A stretch of DNA of 64,000 nucleotides from an uncultured Polaribacter sp. (GCA_947497755.1 CANMHT010000001.1:682001-746000), one strand, 5' to 3'; counted from the stretch's first letter, positions 108 through 12,839 are shown. Program-made: numbers and translations. The notes: generated by a model from the sequence alone, not told the origin.

Positions 108-3100
108 ATGCTTCAAAAAATTAGTATTAAAAAAGAAAAAAAGAACTCATTTAGGTCAAGAAGAACAAGTCTTTTATTAAGATTACTATTATTTTTGGTA
201 TCAGCGACTGTTCATAGTCAAGCAACTTTTACTTCAGGTGCTACAGCTACACAATTAGCTACTCAAATTACTGGGCCAGGAATTACCATTAATAATCCAC
301 AAATCATCTCTGGTGTAGGAACTCAATTAGGAGTTTTTTCTAACGGAATTGCTGGAGCTAACTTACAACTAAATACAGGTATTATCTTAACAACAAGCAC
401 CGTAGCAGAGTCATTTACAACAAATAGTAGTGGAGGAATCTCTTTAGGTCCTGGTACTTTTTATAATGACCCAGATCTTACAGGTATTGTAAGTTCTGCT
501 AATAGAGATGTTGTAGTTTTTCAATTCGAGGCCGTTTTAGACCCTTTGGCAACAGTGCTAACTATTGATTATCAGTTTATGTCTGATGAATACAATGAAT
601 ATGTATGTTCAAATATTAATGATGTATTTGGATATTTTGTTTCAGGACCTGGGATTTCTGGAACTCAAAACATTGCTTTAGTGCCAGGTACACCAAATCC
701 TGTAACAATTGCATCCATCAATAATGGAACAGTTGGTAGTCTTGGAAATATAGCCAATTGTATTGATTTAGGACAGTCGGCTTTATTTACAGACAATACT
801 GGTGGAGCAATTACTGTGGAATATGATGGTGTTACGAATAAATTACGTGCTACAGCAAAAGGCTTAACTCCTGGAGCAACTTATACGGTAAAATTGGCCA
901 TTGCAGATTCATCTGATGGAAGTTATGATTCAGCAGTACTAGTAAATTTAATAAGTGGTTTGGTTGATGATGATGGAGATGGTATCACTAATGATGTAGA
1001 TTTAGATGATGATAATGATGGTATTTATGATGTGATTGAAGATGCCAATACTGATAGTGATAATAATCCTTTAACAAATCCTACTGATACTGATGGTGAT
1101 GGAATTCCGAATTACTTAGATTTAGATTCTGATGGAGATGGAATTCCAGACAATATCGAAGCACAGACAACAAGCGGTTATATAGCACCTGGAGTATTTA
1201 CAGATGTAAATTCTGATGGAGTAAACGATGTCTATGCAGGAGGTTTGGCACCAGTAAATACAGATGGAACTGATTTAGATGATTATTTAGATACAGATGC
1301 AGATAATGACGGGACAAATGATCAGACAGAAGCCACGATTTCTTTTGTGGGAAATGTTGGAAATAATGGACTAGATAATGGATTAGAAGCAATTGATGAT
1401 TATGCTGATGTAAACGGAATATTAAATAATCCAGCAACACTTCCTGATGCAGATGGAGATGTTGGTTCTGGAGGAGATGTAGATTATAGAGATGCCATAA
1501 CACTTGGAGATAATGATGGAGACGGAATTAATGATGATGCCGATTTAGATGATGACAATGATGGGATTTTGGACTCTGTAGAATCTACTTGTGATTCACC
1601 AACCATTCAATTTGTAAATACACCAGATGCCTATTGGACATTAGATAACAATACCAATGACACAAGTGGAAACGCTCATAACGAAAACGGAAGTGCTAGT
1701 TTAACTTATAGTACAACGGCAATTCAAGGTTCTCATTCAGTAAACTTCAATGGAACTTCTCATACGATAAGATATAGTCAAGATGGAGGTTTTATGGAGC
1801 AAGCATATAGCAATATCAGTTTTTCTGCTTGGATAATGCCAAGTTCTTTATCAGGTAACCGAATTATTTATGAAGAAGGAGGAGGTACAAATGGAGCTAC
1901 TTTATGGTTAAATAATAACATTTTAACATATTCTGTACGTAATGGAGGTGGCGGTAGTCAAGTAAATGTTACTCACCAAACTCCATTAGTTGTAGATGGT
2001 ATTTGGCATCACGTAGCAGCTGTTTTTAGCAATGGAAATATTACAGTGTACTTAGATGGGATTCCGTCTAGTACAGTTCCAACAGGTTATGGTACTATTT
2101 CTGCTCATGGAAGTGACGGTGGTTTGGGAGGAGCATTTGGAGGAACACCATCTTCAGGAACTACTGGTTTTTATGCCGGTTTAATGGATGCTGTTAGATA
2201 TTCAAATACAACTGCTTGGCCTGCTGCAAGTATCTTAACTGAAGGTACAAAAGTTTGTGCTGGCTTAAATTTAGATATGGATGGAGATGGCTTAAACAAT
2301 CATTTAGATTTAGATTCAGACGGCGATGGAATTCCAGACAATATAGAAGCACAAACAACCAATGGTTATATTGTTCCAAATGGAGTTTATAATATTGTTG
2401 GTATTGATACAGCATATCCAAATGGACTTATTCCTGTAAATACTGACGGAACAGATACCGTAGATTATTTAGATGTAGATTCTGATAATGAAGGAGCTAA
2501 TGATACAGTTGAGGCAAGCATAACATTAACAGGTAGTGTTAATCCAAATGGGTTAGATGCTGCTGTAGCAACAACATCTTCTTATACAGATGTAAATGGG
2601 ACAATTAATGATCCTACTTTATTGCCAGATTCTGATTCTGATTTGGCAACAACTGGTGATGTAGACTTTAGAGATGCTATTGTAAATATTTCTGTTGGAA
2701 CAGGAAACTCTTTATGGTTACGAGGAGATATTGGTGTTATTGGAGGAGCAATGGTGACACAATGGGTGGATCAAAGTGATTTTAATGGAGATGGTGATTT
2801 TTCAAATGATGCAAACTTTACAGCACCTGGAGGTCAAGAACCCAATGCGGTAACTACTTTGTTAAATTTTAATCCAACATTAACTTTTACACCTGCTAAT
2901 GGAGATGTGTTAACTTTTACAGGAAATATAAATCCAAGAACCATGTATGTTGTTTATAATAATACATCAACAACTAGTTGGACAAGTGTATTTACAAATA
3001 ATGATGGAAACGGAATAGGGCATGGACATGTTAACGATACTCAGATATACCACAGTGGATTTACGCCTGCAAGTGTAAGAAATGGAAATGAGTATATCAA

Positions 3101-5735
3101 TGGATTATCAGTAAATTTTTTAAGTCAAGCAAGACCCGATAATTTTCAATTACAAACCAGAATATTTACTAGTAATTTATCTAATGCAAGTCATATTTAT
3201 TATGTAGGAAGGGATCGTAATTTTTTAGATCGTGTTATTGAAGGAAGTATTGCAGAAATTATCACTTTTACAGAGGCTCATTCTGATGCAGATAGACAAC
3301 GAATTGAAAGTTACTTAGGATTAAAATATGGATTTACTTTAAACGCTACAGATAATTCAGCTAGTATTACAGAAGGAGATTATGTTGCTTCTGATGGATT
3401 GACTAAATATTGGGATTATACAGCCAATTCATCTTATCATAATGATGTGGCAGGAATTGGACAAGACAATACTCAAGTATTAACTCAAAAGCAATCAAAA
3501 TCGGTAAACACTAATGCTTTAATTACTATTGGATTAGGAAATATTGCAACAGATAATGCTTCAAATACCAATACGTTTTCTTCAGATAAGAGTTTCTTGA
3601 TTTGGGGAAATGATAATGCTGTATTAGGAGCAACAAGTACATCTGGGGTTTTATGTGCTACAGATTTACGATTGGATAGAAATTGGAAAATTGTAGAGAC
3701 TGGTACAGTAGAAGAGGTTCAAATAGCCATTCCAAAAACTACTATTGACGCTCATTTAACCAATATAGCTAGATCTAAAGTTATGATTGTAGCAGATGAT
3801 ATTTCCTATACAACAAATGTAGAGTTTGTAGTTTTAACAGAAGCAGTTATTAATGGAGAAATACAATATACAGGGAATTACAATTTTGATGGCACTAAGT
3901 TTTTCACCTTTGCAGAAGTTGGAGGGATTACTTGGAGTGGGACAACGAGCTCATGGAATGGTGGGCAAGGAGTTGGAGGAGCACCAAGTACTAATGCGTT
4001 AGATAATGGAGAATTATTAACTATTGACGCAGAAGGAACAACAAATCATGCAACATTACCAGAAAATGCACAAGTAGGTTGTGTTTGGGTAACTGCAGGT
4101 TCTAAATTAATGGTGCCTTCTGGACAGTTTTTAGAAATAGCAGATCAATTATTTTTAGAAGGAGAAATACGTTTAATTGGTTCAGCACAATTAATACAAA
4201 CTCATACAGGTGTAAGTCAAGTAACAGGTTTAGGAAAAATTTATGTAGATCAGCAAGGAACAGCAGCTACTACATATAGATATAATTATTGGACTTCTCC
4301 AGTAAGTAATATTGGAGCATCAAATTTTACTGTGGATGCAGTAATGAAAGATGGTACAACACCAACTTCAGAAACATCTACGGCAACAGATATTAATTTT
4401 GTCTCTGGATACGATGGAGCAATAACAAACCCAATTACTATTTCTAATCATTGGATTTATGGATTTACCAATGCGCTTTCTGGAACAGGATGGATACAAC
4501 AAAAAGAAACGGGTACTTTTGATATTACTGATGGATTTACATTTAAAGGGCCAGGAGCAGTTCAAAATTATACTTTTGTTGGAACGCCAAATGATGGAAC
4601 ATATACATCAACAATTAGTGCTGGTTATTTAAGCTTACTAGGAAATCCGTATCCTTCAGCAATAGATTCACAACAGTTTTTTAGTGATAATATAGGAGTT
4701 GTAGAGACATTATATTTTTGGGAACATAAAGGAGATTCTAATACACATAATACAGGTGATTATATTGGAGGTTATGGATTGTTAAATGCATCTATGAGTG
4801 TTGCAGGAGTAGCTCCATTTAATGATGATACTGGAGGTCAAGGAAGCTTTACTTATACTGCTCCTGGTAGATATATACCAATTGGACAAGGCTTTTTTGT
4901 CTCTGCTGATGGCTCAGGAAATGTAACGTTTAACAACAGTCAGCGAGTATTTCAATTAGAAAATGAAAATGGAGGTTCTGATTCTTTTTTCTTTAAAAAT
5001 CAATCTAAAACAAATGTTTTATCAGTACCAAATACCAATGAGAATAGTTTACCAATTTTAAAATTAGGTTTTGATTTCATTAATAATGATGGAAAAAAAT
5101 TACATCGTCAGATAGGAATATCTTTTAAATCTGGAAATAAATTTTCTAAAGACGCTGGTTATGACAGTCCTATTTTTGATGTCAATACTACTGATGCCTA
5201 TTTTAGTTTTAATGATGCTAGACAAGATTTTATTATTGCTGGAATAGGAGAAATAACAGATGATCTAGAGTTCCCAATAGCCATTAAAATAGGAAACACT
5301 AATGAAATTACTTTAAGAGTTGATGAAATCTATAATATAGATAGAGATGTTTTTTTAGAAGATAAAGTAACCAATCAACTTTATAATTTAAAGAACTCAA
5401 TACCATTATCAATACCAATAGGAACTTATAAAGATCGATTTTATATCAAATTTGGTAAAAGTGCATTAAGCATTGATGATAATCCTTTAGTGAAAGGAAC
5501 AAAAATCTATATGAATCAACAATCAAAAGAATTAATAATTGAGAATACTACTGGTGATTTGCTTTTAGAAAAAGTTTTAATACATAATGTTTTAGGTCAA
5601 AAAGTAAAACAAGTTTCATTAAAAGAAAATTTAAAAGAGCATCGAATTTCGATAAAAGAGTTAATCTCAAACCTCTATATAATTAGTATTTATTCTAACA
5701 AAGGAAAAATTACAAAGAAGGTTTTTAGAGAATGA
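108..5735 (+). CDS. Large secreted protein: choice-of-anchor L-like N-terminus, Asp-rich thrombospondin type-3-like repeats, LamG/concanavalin-like region, T9SS type A C-terminal sorting domain
   Basis: 1875-aa ORF; hydrophobic N-terminal signal; repeated [19 protein letters not shown] motifs; C-terminal ...[21 protein letters not shown]...[29 protein letters not shown] typical of T9SS tails. Confidence 0.9.
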
Positions 5736-5842
5736 TTTTGTGTAAAAGAACACTAAACCTTAAATCAAATTAAAAGGAAGTGATGTAAGCATAAATAATA
5801 GTAAAAAACCCCCCACTAACTAAAGAACATAAAAATAGAAAA

Positions 5843-6376
5843 ATGAAAAGAGATGAAACAATTAAAAAAAGATGGAATAAAAATTACATTTTAATACTAA
5901 TGTTATTTTTATTAGGAACTTTTAGTTATGGACAAAATTGGAATGATAGAACTGATGGAAAAGAATATTTAGCCATTAGTACTTCAATGGATGTCAATGC
6001 AAATTTGCAAGGAACTTCAAAGAATATTGCTTTGGAAATAGAAAAACTATTTAAAAGGATATATGTTAGAGCAGAATTTAGGCACGTAAATAATACTAAA
6101 AGTGCTTACGGTGATGTTTCAGTAGCATCTGGAGTGCATTTTTCATTTTTCGATATGAATGAAAGTTTTTATGTAGGTGTGAGAGAAGGTGCAATATTTA
6201 GAAATAAAAAAGTATTTAATACTGTAGGAGGAGAAATGGGAATTAGTTTGCGGTTAAACAAAATGCTAGTCGTTGGAGTTAGAACAACACTAGATTACCG
6301 AACAGATTTAAAAATATGGAATTTGCCAAGTAAGTTTGTAAATAGTAACTATATAAAAGTAGGTTATGTTTTCTAA
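5843..6376 (+). CDS. Hypothetical exported protein, possibly small outer-membrane beta-barrel
   Basis: 177-aa ORF with signal peptide (ILILMLFLLGTFSYGQ), alternating amphipathic C-terminal strands ending in aromatic F. Confidence 0.6.
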   Translation: MKRDETIKKRWNKNYILILMLFLLGTFSYGQNWNDRTDGKEYLAISTSMDVNANLQGTSKNIALEIEKLFKRIYVRAEFRHVNNTKSAYGDVSVASGVHFSFFDMNESFYVGVREGAIFRNKKVFNTVGGEMGISLRLNKMLVVGVRTTLDYRTDLKIWNLPSKFVNSNYIKVGYVF

Positions 6377-6481: not shown

Positions 6482-6561
6482 AAAAAACCCAAAACTTTAT
6501 GTTTTGGGTTTTTGTTTGTAGCGAGGAGCAGATTTGAACTGCCGACCTCAGGGTTATGAAT
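6482..6561. repeat. 80-bp direct repeat copy 1 (terminator plus 3' half of tRNA-Met); partner at 12729-12808
   Basis: Aligned by eye to 12729-12808 with constant offset 6247; one mismatch, in the terminator loop (ctttaT vs ctttaG). Confidence 0.97.
6519..6561 (-). pseudogene. Truncated tRNA-Met fragment (anticodon loop to 3' end only)
   Basis: Identical to 12766-12808 of the intact tRNA, then diverges (ttatttctat); no 5' half. Confidence 0.92.
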
Positions 6562-6700
6562 TATTTCTATTTAGATTATTGAGAAATGAAGAACTCTCTA
6601 ATTAATTTATTACTGAGTATTATGGTAAATTTAATTTATACATAATTGAATGTTTAATACATTTAAAAATCTATTATATTTGAAAGAAAATCAATTAACT

Positions 6701-7699
6701 ATGAAAAAAAATATACTCTTTATTTTTTTATTTTTCACTTTTTTATCTTTTTCACAGAATACATATACTGTAGATAATAGAACAGGATCAATTGCAGATT
6801 ATACAGATCTACAAACCGCTATTGATAAAGTTCCAGTTGAAAGTATTTTGATAGTACATGGAAGTACTACCAGTTATGGAAGCATAAACATTTCAAAAAA
6901 AATAATAATTAAAGGAACTGGGTATTTTTTAGATGAAAACTCAAAAACTCAAAGTAACGTTAACAGTTCTAAATTAGGAGGAGTATATTTTAGAGCAGGG
7001 GCATCTGGGGCGATTATTACTGGACTGGATATAGAACCAGTAATTATTTATGATGAGGTTTCAAATGTATCTATTTTAAGAAATCGAATAAAGTATATAA
7101 AAGATGAAAACGAGAAAGGAACAAATATTTTAGTTTCAAATAATTTTATATATAGTTCATTTAAAACAAATCCAAATAGTTCAGCTACATCGACAGGAAT
7201 TTTACTTTCAGATAGTAAAATAACAGGTAATATAATAATTTCTAGAGTTACTGGGCGAAGATTAGAATTAACAAATAATATTCTTTCTGGAAATGTAATT
7301 CATGGGAATTACATGTATAATTCTATTATTAAAAATAATGTATATAAAACAGGGCTTTATGATAGTAGTGCTTCGTTTTCAAACACTATAAAAAATAATA
7401 TTATAAAAAGCACAGTTGACCAAACAGGTTCTGATGGGAATATTTACAAATCCTCAATTGATAATTTATTTATTAATAGTACAGATTCTAGATACACTTC
7501 TGATGGTAGATATATTTTAAAAAATGGTTCAATTGCTATTGGTGCTGGAGAAAACGGTGTAGATGTTGGCCCTTTTGGAGGAGGTTATAAACTCTCAGGA
7601 ATACCTGATATTCCAAATATTTATGAGTTTATTGTACCAACTACAGGGTATACAAATGATGGTATTCAGGTAAAAGTTAAAATAAAAAGTAACAACTAA
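6701..7699 (+). CDS. Secreted parallel beta-helix (pectate-lyase-like fold) protein
   Basis: Internal Met at 6701 gives a clean signal peptide MKKNILFIFLFFTFLSFSQ (ORF track start is 6650); repeated short Asn/Ile-rich rungs (NNILSGNVIHGNYMYNSIIKNNVY). Confidence 0.65.
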   Translation: MKKNILFIFLFFTFLSFSQNTYTVDNRTGSIADYTDLQTAIDKVPVESILIVHGSTTSYGSINISKKIIIKGTGYFLDENSKTQSNVNSSKLGGVYFRAGASGAIITGLDIEPVIIYDEVSNVSILRNRIKYIKDENEKGTNILVSNNFIYSSFKTNPNSSATSTGILLSDSKITGNIIISRVTGRRLELTNNILSGNVIHGNYMYNSIIKNNVYKTGLYDSSASFSNTIKNNIIKSTVDQTGSDGNIYKSSIDNLFINSTDSRYTSDGRYILKNGSIAIGAGENGVDVGPFGGGYKLSGIPDIPNIYEFIVPTTGYTNDGIQVKVKIKSNN

Positions 7700-7707
7700 A
7701 AAAGGTT

Positions 7708-10700
7708 ATGAAAAAAGTATTTTTTCTACTAGCCTTTTTTATAGGAGGCTTTATTTATGGACAAAATATAACCAAAGTTGAGTATTTTTTTGATACTGAC
7801 CCTGGTTATGATAATGGTACTTCAATTAGTTTTACCCCAAGTTCTGAATTAGACTTAAATATCAATATTCCCGTCAATAATTTATCACTTGGGGTACATA
7901 CTTTATATATAAGAGCAAAAGATAAAAACAATATTTGGAGCTTATATGATAAGCGTAGTTTTTATGTGGCTAAAGGTAGTAGCACAATCCCTAACATTAC
8001 ACAAATAGAATACTTCTTTGATGATGATCCAGGTTATGGAAAAGGGAAACAGTTAACGTTTACTGAAAACACAGAGATTGATAAAGATTTTGTTATTCCT
8101 TTAGTTGGTTTAACATCTGGTAACCATACTCTTTATATTAGAGCTAAAGATACTTATGGAAAATGGAGTTTATATAGTCAAGGTAATGTGACTGTTACCG
8201 ATTGGAACTGTAATTATGCTGATGTAAACTCAACCCATTGGTGGTATAACGCAGTACAAGATTTATGCGGAAAAAGAGTAATAGATAATAATGGTTTAGC
8301 AAGACCAGATGAATTTATCAATAGAGCTGAATTGGCTAAAGTGTCGTATAAGAGTATTGATTTGCAAAATAATTCATTAGCAGATAATTTTCCAACACCA
8401 TATATCGATTTACAAGATGAAAATATATGGTATTTCAAATTTGCAAAAAACTTATCTTATTTAGAGTTTGGTGATGGAGTTGCTCCTTTTCAAAAAGATT
8501 TTGCCAATTTTAGGCCATCAGGAAAAATAACAAGAGCTCATGTTTTAAAAGTTCTTTTAGAAACTTGGAATATTGATGAAAAAGACAATTCAGGAAACAA
8601 TCCTTATAGTGATGTAAATACAAGTCATGAAGCTTATGATTATATTATTAAAGCCAAGGATTTAGGTATTATTGAAAGTGGTAGTAATTTCAGACCTAAT
8701 GATAATGCGTTAAGAGCTGAAGTGTTCGTTATGCTTCATCGTATATTAACAGTAAATCCACAAACTAAGCCTACTGTAACTATAGATAGTTTTTTAAGAG
8801 TTGGTAACTATACCCCGCAAAATTTAAATAACTTTTCTTCTATTCACAGTGGTAATTTTAACCATTATACAGAAACCAGTTTTGGTATTTCAAGTGTTGG
8901 TATTCCTTTAACCTTTAGTCATACCTATAACAGTTATTTATCAGATATGCCTAAGGAACTTTCCTATCTTCAACCTTTAGGAAAGATGTGGACACATTCT
9001 TTTAACAGTTATATACAAGAAATTAAAGCTGATGAGGCTTTTCCTGAATATTTTAGAATTGCTTTAACCCTTCCAAATGGTGGTTTTCAGTTTTATAAAA
9101 AGCAAGACCAAAATTATGTGCCTGAAACAGAAGGTATTTATGACGAGTTAGAAAAAACGGGAGCAAATGAATTTACACTCACTACTAAAGGGCAAATTGT
9201 TTATACTTTCTTAAAAGCAAATGCTGACTCTCGTTTTTATGCTCTTAAATCTATAAAAGATAGAAATGATAATACGCTTACGATTACTTATGAAGAGGGA
9301 GTAACAGAAATTGAAGAAGATGGAGTAAAGGAAAAACTTATCAGAGTTAAAGAAGTAACGGGAACAGCAGGCAGAACATTAATATTTTCTTACTACACAC
9401 AATCTGATTTATTAAAACAAGTAACAGATCCTTTAGGTAGAAATGTTTATTTTACTTATGATGCTTTTGGTTATTTACAATCATATCTTAATCCAAAAGG
9501 GAATCTAACAGTTTATAATTATGGCTTAGCTCAAGAAAGAGATTTATTGAAAACCATCAGATTACCGAAAGGAAATGTGATTACTAGTAGTTATGAAAAC
9601 AAGAAGTTAAAAAGTATTGAAACTAGTGGAGTTGACCCTAAGAAATACACTTATGTTTATGATGACGCTAAAGGATATATAGACGAAATAATTTCTCCAA
9701 CTGGTAAAAAAACAGAAATTGATTTCAACAAATATGGAAATTTAACGAATCTAAAAGAAGGTACTACCAAAGTTGAAATTAAATATGAAAATACTAATCA
9801 TATAAATTATCCAACAGAGGTAACTTACAACACTCAAAAGACTTCTGTTACCTATGATGATAAAGGTAATATTCTTCAAAGAATGTTACCAGAAGGTGTT
9901 ACACAAACCTATCAATATAATGCACGTAATGATATTGAACAATTTACAGACCCAAAAGGGAATCTATATGAATATGGTTATGACTCAAAAGGGAACTTAA
10001 CAAGTGTAAAAACACCTAGAGCAATTACTAATTTTACTGTAAATGATAAAGGATTAGTTACTCAAGTAACAAATCCAGAAAATATTACTGTTAGTTTTAC
10101 GTATGACGCTTATGGAAATGTTGTGCAGACTACTGCACCAGAAGAAATTACTACCAGTGCAACCTTTGATATTGCCAGTCGATTATTGACTAGTACCAAT
10201 CCTAAAGGAAATACTATTTCGTATACTTATGATGCGAATGACAATTTATTAAGCGAACTATTTGGTGGTCAAACTACGGCTTATGAGTTTGATGCAAATG
10301 ATAACCTAACCAAGATTATCAATGCTAAAAACAAAGCTACTACACTTACTTATGATACCAATGATGATACTCTAACTTCTGTACATTTTGGTACAGCTAC
10401 TGATGAATATACGTATTATGATGATGGTTCTATTAAGACCTATACAAATCCAAAGGGTACTGTATTTACTTATACCTATGATGATCAAAACAGATTAGAA
10501 AAAGTTACAGATGGAGGAAAGACAATAAATTACACTTATGATAGTAAAGATAGAACTCATACTGTAACAAATGAAAATGGTACAATTACTTATGGTTATG
10601 ATGATTTAGACCGTGTTACTTCTACAGAATATGGTGGGAAAACTGTAGGTTATAGTTATGACAAGAATAGCAATGTAAAAAGTATTACCTATCCAGATGG

Positions 10701-12126
10701 GAAACAAGTAACGTATTCTTACTATTCTGATAATCTCCTAAAGACAGTCACAGACTGGAACGGTCATTTGACCGAATATACATATAGAAATGATGGCTTA
10801 TTGAATTCTACAGCTTATCCAAATGGTACAAAATGTACTTATTTATATGACGGAGCAGGAAGAATGGTAGCGAAGACTTGGAAAAAGTCTGATGATAGCA
10901 TTATTAACGCTTACAGTTTTCATTTGGATAAGATGGGTAATCATACCCAAGAGATAAAGACTGAGCCTTTTGGTGTAATTCCTTTAAATATAGAAACACA
11001 AAACTACAGTTATACAGATGCCAACCGTTTAGAATCTGTTAATAATACAGCTTTTGATTTTGATAAAAATGGAAACAACACTGTAAAAGGAAACACACAA
11101 TACAGTTACGATATTTACGATAGACTAATTGGAATTTCTAAAACAGGTTATACAGCTCAATACAAGTATGATGCGCTAGGTAACCGCCGAGAAAAAACGG
11201 TAAACGGTGCTACGCAACGTTTTGTATTAGATATTTTAGGACTGAGTAATGTACTTGCAGAAACCGATGAACATGGAAATTACCAAAACTATTATGTTTA
11301 TGGTTTAGGGTTAATATCTCGTACAGATAATAATGATAATACGCATTATTATCACGATGATTTTAGAGGTAGTACCATTGCTATGACCAATGATAGTGAA
11401 ACTATTACTCATAAATACGCTTATGACGATTTTGGAAAAGTAACCCAAATAGAAGAAGCTAATTTTAACCCATATAGATATGTAGGGAAGTACGGAATCC
11501 AATATGAGGATGAAGACCTTTACTTTATGCGAGCAAGGTATTATAATCCTGATGTTGGTCGCTTTTTAACAGAAGATCCTATATGGGCTACTAATCTTTA
11601 TCCTTATGCAGGGAATAATCCTGTGATGAATGTTGATGTTAGTGGAGCTAAAAGTGTAGAGTTGAATTTCGGTTACAATCTTATCTTGTTTTACTCGGTA
11701 ATACTTGAAAATATTAAAATATCATGTGACTTAAATTATTGCTCTATATATCACACTAATGGTAGTGGTTTTTCAACCGTAAAACATAATATTAAATCAT
11801 TTATTAACACAGGAATTAGTTCTTGTACTAGAGAGCAAAATAATGGAGCAGATTTTGAATTAAATGCTGATTTAGAACTTTCTAAAGACTTAAGGTTTCC
11901 GGATATTCTTGTAAGTTATTCTTCAGTAAATAATTGTTATTTTGCAGGCTTTGAGTACTCATTAGAAATAGATTCTTCAAAAACTTCGATTGATTTTATA
12001 ACTTCTGAAACTAAAGAAGTTGATGTAATAAGGACTCCTCCCAAATTTTTTAGTGATATATTACGAGAATGGATATATATAGAGACAAAATTTGATGTTT
12101 TTAATCTTAATAATTTCAAAAATTAG
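7708..12126 (+). CDS. SLH-domain-containing YD/RHS-repeat protein with RHS core motif and variable C-terminal domain
   Basis: Signal peptide; two N-terminal ~70-aa repeats (ITKVEYFFDTDPGY / ITQIEYFFDDDPGY); SLH-like motifs; many YDxxGN repeats; RHS core YYNPDVGRFLTEDPIWATNLYPYAGNNPVMNVDVSGA, then ~157 unrelated residues. Confidence 0.9.
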   Translation: MKKVFFLLAFFIGGFIYGQNITKVEYFFDTDPGYDNGTSISFTPSSELDLNINIPVNNLSLGVHTLYIRAKDKNNIWSLYDKRSFYVAKGSSTIPNITQIEYFFDDDPGYGKGKQLTFTENTEIDKDFVIPLVGLTSGNHTLYIRAKDTYGKWSLYSQGNVTVTDWNCNYADVNSTHWWYNAVQDLCGKRVIDNNGLARPDEFINRAELAKVSYKSIDLQNNSLADNFPTPYIDLQDENIWYFKFAKNLSYLEFGDGVAPFQKDFANFRPSGKITRAHVLKVLLETWNIDEKDNSGNNPYSDVNTSHEAYDYIIKAKDLGIIESGSNFRPNDNALRAEVFVMLHRILTVNPQTKPTVTIDSFLRVGNYTPQNLNNFSSIHSGNFNHYTETSFGISSVGIPLTFSHTYNSYLSDMPKELSYLQPLGKMWTHSFNSYIQEIKADEAFPEYFRIALTLPNGGFQFYKKQDQNYVPETEGIYDELEKTGANEFTLTTKGQIVYTFLKANADSRFYALKSIKDRNDNTLTITYEEGVTEIEEDGVKEKLIRVKEVTGTAGRTLIFSYYTQSDLLKQVTDPLGRNVYFTYDAFGYLQSYLNPKGNLTVYNYGLAQERDLLKTIRLPKGNVITSSYENKKLKSIETSGVDPKKYTYVYDDAKGYIDEIISPTGKKTEIDFNKYGNLTNLKEGTTKVEIKYENTNHINYPTEVTYNTQKTSVTYDDKGNILQRMLPEGVTQTYQYNARNDIEQFTDPKGNLYEYGYDSKGNLTSVKTPRAITNFTVNDKGLVTQVTNPENITVSFTYDAYGNVVQTTAPEEITTSATFDIASRLLTSTNPKGNTISYTYDANDNLLSELFGGQTTAYEFDANDNLTKIINAKNKATTLTYDTNDDTLTSVHFGTATDEYTYYDDGSIKTYTNPKGTVFTYTYDDQNRLEKVTDGGKTINYTYDSKDRTHTVTNENGTITYGYDDLDRVTSTEYGGKTVGYSYDKNSNVKSITYPDGKQVTYSYYSDNLLKTVTDWNGHLTEYTYRNDGLLNSTAYPNGTKCTYLYDGAGRMVAKTWKKSDDSIINAYSFHLDKMGNHTQEIKTEPFGVIPLNIETQNYSYTDANRLESVNNTAFDFDKNGNNTVKGNTQYSYDIYDRLIGISKTGYTAQYKYDALGNRREKTVNGATQRFVLDILGLSNVLAETDEHGNYQNYYVYGLGLISRTDNNDNTHYYHDDFRGSTIAMTNDSETITHKYAYDDFGKVTQIEEANFNPYRYVGKYGIQYEDEDLYFMRARYYNPDVGRFLTEDPIWATNLYPYAGNNPVMNVDVSGAKSVELNFGYNLILFYSVILENIKISCDLNYCSIYHTNGSGFSTVKHNIKSFINTGISSCTREQNNGADFELNADLELSKDLRFPDILVSYSSVNNCYFAGFEYSLEIDSSKTSIDFITSETKEVDVIRTPPKFFSDILREWIYIETKFDVFNLNNFKN

Positions 12127-12130
12127 AAAA

Positions 12131-12595
12131 ATGATAAGCTATAAAAAAAACAAAATTATAAAAACAGTAGTGATAGCGTTATTATTCTTTAATTGCCTAA
12201 GTGTATTTTCTCAAAAATCACACTCCAAAAAATACGACAACTTTAACCGTCTTATAGAGTCTTCAGATGGTATAAATACTATAGTATATACTTATGATGA
12301 GCTAGGGAATAGAACCCAAGAAAGTGTTACAGTTACCTTATCGGTTTCTGAAGAGCAAATTGTAGGGTTAAAACTATACCCGAACCCTACGCCTAAAAAG
12401 ATTACGATTACTGCCAAAAACACCATTAATAAAGTATTAGTCTATGATAATTTAGGAAGACGTACTCTTATCAAAGAAATAAAAAACGCTAAAAATTCTA
12501 TAGAAATAGATATTTCTAAATTCAGTGTAGGCATTTACCATTTTGTAGTGTATTCTGAAGGGAAAAAGCAATCTTTAAAAGTTTTTAAAAAATAA
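12131..12595 (+). CDS. Short YD-repeat remnant protein with T9SS type A sorting domain
   Basis: Met at 12131 gives a signal peptide (ORF track start 12092 overlaps upstream gene); YDNFNRLIESSDGINTIVYTYDELGNRTQES then LKLYPNPTPKKITITAKN...VGIYHFVVYSEGKKQSLKVFKK. Confidence 0.8.
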   Translation: MISYKKNKIIKTVVIALLFFNCLSVFSQKSHSKKYDNFNRLIESSDGINTIVYTYDELGNRTQESVTVTLSVSEEQIVGLKLYPNPTPKKITITAKNTINKVLVYDNLGRRTLIKEIKNAKNSIEIDISKFSVGIYHFVVYSEGKKQSLKVFKK

Positions 12596-12728
12596 GATAG
12601 ATGTATTTGCTCTTATTTTTTTAACTAAACATGTTGTATTTTGTCGTTTAAAATGATGTAATAATTGGTAAGTGTTTGATTGTTAAAAAGATTCAATACT
12701 AGTTGACATTATATATTGTAATTAAAAC

Positions 12729-12808
12729 AAAAAACCCAAAACTTTAGGTTTTGGGTTTTTGTTTGTAGCGAGGAGCAGATTTGAACTGCCGACCTCAGGG
12801 TTATGAAT
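12729..12808. repeat. 80-bp direct repeat copy 2 (terminator plus 3' half of tRNA-Met)
   Basis: Matches 6482-6561 with one mismatch. Confidence 0.97.
12733..12760 (-). terminator. Rho-independent-like terminator of tRNA-Met (copy also near 6486-6513)
   Basis: AACCCAAAAC-TTTAG-GTTTTGGGTT hairpin flanked by A- and T-rich tracts. Confidence 0.7.
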
Positions 12809-12839
12809 CCTGCGCTCTAACCAACTGAGCTACCTCGCC
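12766..12839 (-). tRNA. tRNA-Met (CAT)
   Basis: Reverse complement GGCGAGGTAGCTCAGTTGGTTAGAGCGCAGGATTCATAACCCTGAGGTCGGCAGTTCAAATCTGCTCCTCGCTA folds as a cloverleaf; anticodon CAT; CCA not encoded. Confidence 0.95.

What the first reader, a model, noticed from the sequence alone, without database searches (positions are those of the whole stretch)
6482..12839. RHS cassette bounded by duplicated tRNA-Met 3' half: candidate integrative element without its own integrase
An intact tRNA-Met(CAT) lies at 12766-12839 (minus). An 80-bp segment from its anticodon loop through the 3' end and terminator (12729-12808) is repeated at 6482-6561 with one mismatch. The tRNA portion is identical, so recombination between the copies would excise about 6247 bp and restore a complete tRNA. 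This geometry (intact tRNA at one end, 3' fragment at the other, break in the anticodon loop) is classic for tyrosine-recombinase integration into tRNA genes. The cargo is only a beta-helix protein, an RHS protein and a mini-YD/T9SS protein, with no recombinase ORF. It may be a degenerate island, a satellite mobilised in trans, or a swap-in RHS cassette.
Basis: partly seen in the sequence, partly recalled or inferred. Interest (0 to 1): 0.85.

Follow-up and report, generated by a model that had tools for sequence, protein, structure and literature searches.

The report
Integrase-less toxin island at tRNA-Met
A 6.2-kb block carrying a large antibacterial-toxin-type (RHS) gene sits in a transfer-RNA gene of a marine Polaribacter exactly where many integrase-carrying mobile islands sit in related species, but it has no integrase of its own, so it looks like a stripped-down mobile island that could only move again with help from another element.

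Summary
An 80-bp segment (3' half of a single-copy tRNA-Met plus its terminator) is repeated 6247 bp away with one mismatch. Removing the intervening DNA in silico restores a complete tRNA-Met. Comparison with 168 genomes of the same genus (Polaribacter) shows that this tRNA is an integration hotspot. At least 17 genomes have a duplicated 3' half on one contig. In 11 of 13 fragment junctions read, the window's included, identity with the tRNA begins at the same base (tRNA position 32, edge of the anticodon loop). Ten of the 12 fragment-bounded islands first read carry a tyrosine integrase. The two without one, the window's and an independent one in G015, both carry RHS toxin-type genes. An RHS gene is cargo of an integrase-bearing island in G079. 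A ~62-kb carbohydrate-use island at the same tRNA, with a shared wrecked integrase, is 96.6% identical between two species whose flanks are 83% identical, so islands without a working integrase do spread at this site. Best reading: a CIME-like (cis-mobilizable) RHS island, inserted by a tyrosine recombinase and lacking one now. It is a new member of a known kind. Integrase loss, present mobility and toxin activity are inferred.

The parts
12765..12839 (-). intact single-copy tRNA-Met(CAT); its 3' half belongs to the element side of the attL-like junction
12729..12808 (-). attL-like copy: tRNA positions 32-75 plus the intrinsic terminator
   Evidence: terminator hairpin 12730-12760
6482..6561 (-). 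attR-like copy: displaced tRNA 3' half (identical over the tRNA part) plus terminator (1 mismatch in its loop)
6650..7699 (+). 349-aa secreted protein, possible beta-helix; a homologous pair precedes the related RHS gene in G167
7708..12126 (+). 1472-aa RHS/YD-repeat protein with Rhs-associated core (residues 1239-1313)
   Evidence: Pfam PF05593 162 bits, TIGR03696 58.8 bits
11659..12126 (+). variable C-terminal tip of the RHS protein (about residues 1318-1472), presumed toxin domain of unknown type
   Evidence: identity to the G167 homologue falls from 74% to 34%, then 0-18%, at this point
12131..12595 (+). 154-aa secreted mini protein: one YD repeat plus a T9SS sorting tail
   Evidence: TIGR04183 36.3 bits, TIGR01643 18.9 bits
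12950..13333 (+). START_2 gene: conserved chromosomal anchor next to tRNA-Met, not part of the island
5843..6376 (+). left neighbour outside the fragment (177 aa, own-genome paralogues only); part of the ~59-kb variable stretch up to tRNA-Gly

Best explanation
It is an integrative island that a tyrosine recombinase inserted into the anticodon loop of the only tRNA-Met gene of this type; the island brought its own copy of the tRNA 3' half and terminator, so the tRNA stayed whole and the old 3' half was pushed 6.2 kb away. Its cargo is a polymorphic-toxin-type RHS operon. The integrase is missing now, either deleted or removed with a neighbouring element, leaving a CIME-like unit: two att sites around cargo, able to move only if a related integrase acts on its ends or if an integrase-bearing element inserts next to it and takes it along. 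Shown: the att geometry, the shared break point, the absence of an integrase, recent acquisition, and spread of another integrase-defective island at this site. Inferred: that an integrase was once inside, that the ends still work, and that the RHS tip is a toxin.
For: Two-copy 80-bp repeat, tRNA restored on in-silico excision. Identity of fragment and tRNA starts at tRNA position 32 in 11 of 13 Polaribacter junctions, this one included. Tyrosine integrases lie within 8-138 bp of the same tRNA 3' end in 15 of 73 surveyed genomes, PF00589 confirmed for five of them and for many by family search. Ten of 12 fully read fragment-bounded islands carry an integrase; the two without are the two RHS islands G000 and G015. 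G079 carries a 2218-aa RHS gene inside a 30-kb island with integrase at the same tRNA. Uninterrupted arrangement in G020 and others. RHS pair in 2 of 168 genomes. The G107/G120 island shows integrase decay (same ~80-95 aa remnant in both) and spread between species (96.6% island against 82.8% flank). CIME definition from PMC7563491.
Against: No integrase remnant is detectable in the 6.2-kb block, so loss is not demonstrated. The inner flank of the fragment resembles no integrase-bearing island's flank beyond chance (best 18/37, G120), so the enzyme involved cannot be named. Base composition does not set the block apart (26-33% GC inside, similar outside). No genome with the same left flank and an empty site was found. 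The terminator is 35/36 identical in both copies, whereas most integrase-bearing islands bring a different terminator, so the donor must have been very close, or conversion occurred.
Confidence: 0.68

Rival explanations
1. A dedicated non-autonomous cassette (satellite-like): RHS cassettes evolved att ends to be integrated and excised in trans by integrases of other tRNA-Met elements and never had their own.
For: Two independent integrase-less RHS islands at this tRNA (G000, G015), genes in the same orientation, no integrase remnant in either; integrases for this attB are common in the genus; the att core starts at the same base as theirs.
Against: The two RHS cassettes are not related to each other beyond being RHS (separate phmmer hits only); the G015 fragment is decayed (3 mismatches, different terminator); inner flanks match no known island type; none of the host's own integrases is close to the common tRNA-Met integrases.
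Confidence: 0.18
2. No recombinase was involved: the tRNA 3' half was duplicated by ordinary duplication or homologous recombination, and RHS genes happened to land between the copies.
For: Tandem tRNA-Met duplications exist in the order (G024); short tRNA homology can guide homologous recombination.
Against: The break falls at tRNA position 32, the same base as in ten other junctions, all of them beside integrase-bearing islands; the other edge falls at the end of the terminator; the RHS operon is absent from all but one other genome.
Confidence: 0.08
3. Assembly artefact: two unrelated places joined at an 80-bp repeat.
For: Draft genome of 52 contigs; in the sister genome G011 the assembly breaks exactly in the anticodon of this tRNA.
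Against: The two copies differ by one base and lie well inside a 750-kb contig; START_2-tRNA-Met order matches relatives, and tRNA-Gly lies 58 kb further on in the expected order and orientation.
Confidence: 0.03

Closest known systems
CIMEs (cis-mobilizable elements; streptococcal ICE/IME derivatives, PMC7563491)
   Same: att sites at both ends, cargo only, no recombination or transfer gene; known alone at a tRNA 3' end or in tandem arrays; classical ones are 1.2-13 kb
   Different: host is Bacteroidota, cargo is an RHS locus, no parent ICE/IME identified, accretion-mobilisation not shown
integrase-bearing tRNA-Met islands of Polaribacter (G001, G048, G079, G100, G145 and others, this study)
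   Same: same tRNA, same break base, 3' half plus terminator carried by the element; G079 even carries RHS cargo
   Different: they carry a 450-465-aa tyrosine integrase next to the tRNA; terminators and inner flanks differ from the window's
Dehalococcoides ssrA genomic islands (PMC3146451)
   Same: tandem islands bounded by repeats of an RNA-gene 3' end; many, but not all, with the integration module
   Different: serine recombinase, tmRNA target, respiratory cargo
RHS polymorphic toxins (PMC3482391)
   Same: YD repeats, Rhs-associated core, conserved body with a C-terminal tip that differs completely between homologues
   Different: no toxin family assigned to the tip, no clear immunity gene; the next gene carries a T9SS tail

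Membership tests
tRNA-targeted integrative element | intact tRNA at one end and a direct repeat of its 3' end at the other | tested here: met
tRNA-targeted integrative element | site-specific break point shared with other insertions at that tRNA | tested here: met
   tRNA position 32 in 11 of 13 junctions
tRNA-targeted integrative element | own integrase gene (autonomous forms) | tested here: not met
   none in the window; PF00589 matches only on other contigs
CIME | retains attL and attR | tested here: met
   sequence level only; activity untested
CIME | no recombination, conjugation or mobilisation genes | tested here: met
   three cargo ORFs only, none matching an integrase, relaxase or coupling-protein family
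CIME | derived from an ICE or IME by deletion | tested here: inconclusive
   no remnant in this island; decay shown for the G107/G120 island at the same tRNA
CIME | moves by accretion with an integrase-bearing element | not testable with these tools
   needs strains or reads; tandem arrays at this tRNA exist in G057, G093, G120
RHS polymorphic toxin | YD/RHS repeats and Rhs-associated core | tested here: met
RHS polymorphic toxin | variable C-terminal tip after a conserved core | tested here: met
   one homologue, G167
RHS polymorphic toxin | toxic tip and cognate immunity protein | not testable with these tools
   no family match; the next ORF is a T9SS-tailed protein, not an obvious immunity gene

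The most novel reading that the evidence does not exclude
At the tRNA-Met site of Polaribacter, integrase-less att-bounded islands (RHS toxins in G000 and G015, a ~62-kb carbohydrate-use locus in G107/G120) form a standing population of cargo units that spread between species by borrowing the integrases of resident islands.
Probability: 0.25. Interest if true: 0.6.

Novelty: new member of a known kind. Interest (0 to 1): 0.42.

Why it matters
It ties RHS toxin-type loci and carbohydrate-use loci of marine flavobacteria to a definable integration site, and gives a case in which an island with a wrecked integrase appears to have moved between species. That makes the borrowing of integrases by cargo-only islands in Bacteroidota directly testable with a short att assay.

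Tried and rejected
Compositional evidence of foreign origin: none, GC 26-33% as in the surroundings. Close match of the host's integrases to the tRNA-Met integrases: none; only a distant grouping of the C12 integrase with G130's. Integrase remnant inside the block: nothing better than E 0.29. The RHS protein in viral contigs: no relative. The mini protein in phage records: no match. Flanking repeats around the related G167 locus: none bounding it. Matching the fragment's inner flank to an integrase-bearing island type: not beyond chance. A solved relative of the 349-aa protein by sequence: none. The local RHS survey missed the G079 RHS gene, which the TIGR03696 search found, so absence of RHS in other surveyed loci is not strict.

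Full report
What is there. The window holds a single tRNA-Met(CAT) at 12765-12839 on the minus strand. The segment from tRNA position 32 through the terminator (12729-12808) recurs at 6482-6561 with one mismatch, in the terminator loop. These are the only full-length copies in the genome. Joining the flanks removes 6247 bp and yields a complete tRNA-Met. Between the copies lie a 349-aa secreted protein, a 1472-aa RHS protein and a 154-aa YD/T9SS mini protein, all transcribed towards the tRNA. No known tyrosine integrase matches anywhere in the window.

Organism.

Ancestral state. In relatives the START_2 gene next to the tRNA is a fixed anchor. In 12 of 73 surveyed genomes tRNA-Met is followed by tRNA-Gly within 1 kb, for example 160 bp in the relative G020. 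In the window's genome the gene block behind tRNA-Gly lies about 59 kb from tRNA-Met. So the stretch between the two tRNAs is a hotspot, and the RHS block is its tRNA-proximal layer.

The hotspot. A pattern for the tRNA 3' half finds it duplicated on one contig, same strand, in at least 17 of 168 Polaribacter genomes, at distances of 6 to 117 kb, with up to five copies. The junctions of 12 such genomes were read. In 11 of 13 fragments identity with the tRNA begins at position 32; the exceptions are G130 (33) and the decayed G015 (36). Tyrosine integrases sit within 8-138 bp beyond the tRNA 3' end in 15 surveyed genomes, and at the far end of the island in G130. Most integrase-bearing islands bring their own terminator; in the window's genome both terminators are 35/36 identical, which points to a donor very close to the host or to conversion.

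The exceptions. Of the 12 fragment-bounded islands first read, two lack an integrase: the window's and that of G015. Both carry RHS genes. In G015 these are a 1315-aa RHS protein (TIGR03696 50 bits, DUF6443), a displaced second tip of 215 aa that shares the pre-tip region but not the end, and small ORFs that could be immunity genes. With 12 islands this association is suggestive only (1 in 66 under random assignment). In G079 a 2218-aa RHS gene is cargo of a 30-kb island with an integrase next to the same tRNA, so RHS cargo on an integrase-bearing island at this site exists. Further genomes with longer islands were looked at later: G045 carries integrases, while G107 and one segment of G120 carry only a remnant, so integrase-less islands at this site are not confined to RHS cargo.

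Acquisition. The 349-aa protein and the RHS N-terminal region occur together, at full strength, only in the window's genome and in G167 among 168 genomes. In G167 the homologous operon (53% identity in the RHS N-terminal region) is not near a tRNA. The two RHS proteins agree up to about residue 1318 and then differ entirely, the mark of polymorphic toxins (PMC3482391, from general knowledge of that family; its text was not read here). The fragment has no substitution in 44 tRNA-derived bases, while the sister genome G011 is only 84% identical over the anchor region, so the insertion is recent.

Movement without an own integrase. In G107 and G120 a ~62-kb island with a SusC/TonB-type receptor, a SusD protein, an alkaline phosphatase and other carbohydrate genes lies between tRNA-Met copies. 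It is 96.6% identical between the two genomes, against 82.8% in the neighbouring core flank. Its only recombinase trace is the same fragment of about 80-95 residues at the far end in both. It therefore appears to have spread after its integrase was wrecked. In both genomes the next block begins with a degenerate integrase of the common family, as expected if neighbours lend the enzyme. Transformation followed by homologous recombination is an alternative.

Interpretation. A CIME is an element that keeps its att sites but has lost all recombination and transfer genes and moves only by accretion with an ICE or IME (PMC7563491). The window's island fits the anatomy. Two defining points are open: descent from an integrase-bearing parent, and activity of the ends. 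It is therefore called CIME-like. The main rival is a cassette that always relied on foreign integrases.

Limits. The genome is a draft of 52 contigs. The sister genome G011 breaks exactly at the anticodon of this tRNA, which suggests structural variation there but gives no empty site. RHS detection in the survey was incomplete, as the missed G079 gene shows. No experiment on excision exists.

Noticed in passing
L233-L236 (G107) and L229-L232 (G120): A ~62-kb island (alkaline phosphatase, SusC/SusD-type proteins, xylose-isomerase-like protein) bounded by tRNA-Met 3' copies, integrase reduced to a remnant, 96.6% identical between two species with 83% identical flanks.
   Followed up: partly
L048, L125-L126, L128-L139 (G001, G057, G145, G100, G052, G087, G048, G079): A Polaribacter family of tRNA-Met islands with a four-gene core: integrase, ~321 aa unknown, 344 aa DnaB/AAA-like ATPase, ~288 aa Zn-ribbon + DUF6371 protein; cargo seen by eye includes Cas9 loci, defence-like genes, cation efflux, RHS.
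   Followed up: partly
G000 contig C10 (36.9-38.2, 97.9-99.3, 115.2-117.0 kb); also G130:C17 and G057:C2: Adjacent pairs of tyrosine recombinases lie among RHS genes in three genomes, resembling multi-recombinase (RIT-type) elements inside RHS arrays.
   Followed up: no
window 108-6376; L167 2555-8236; L168 2359-8311: A large surface protein (1711-1875 aa; LamG and T9SS tail in the window copy) is followed by a ~170-aa outer-membrane-like protein; four copies of the small protein in this genome and none in 38 relatives.
   Followed up: partly
tRNA-Met 3' half across the genus (loci): The T-arm and acceptor part of tRNA-Met exists in a few alleles (GGCAG, ACGGG, ACGAG, GGGGG) scattered among species, perhaps footprints of past island insertions that replace the 3' half.
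   Followed up: no
G011 contigs C95 and C31 (L006, L163): The sister genome's assembly breaks within the anticodon of this tRNA-Met, as if two arrangements coexist there.
   Followed up: partly
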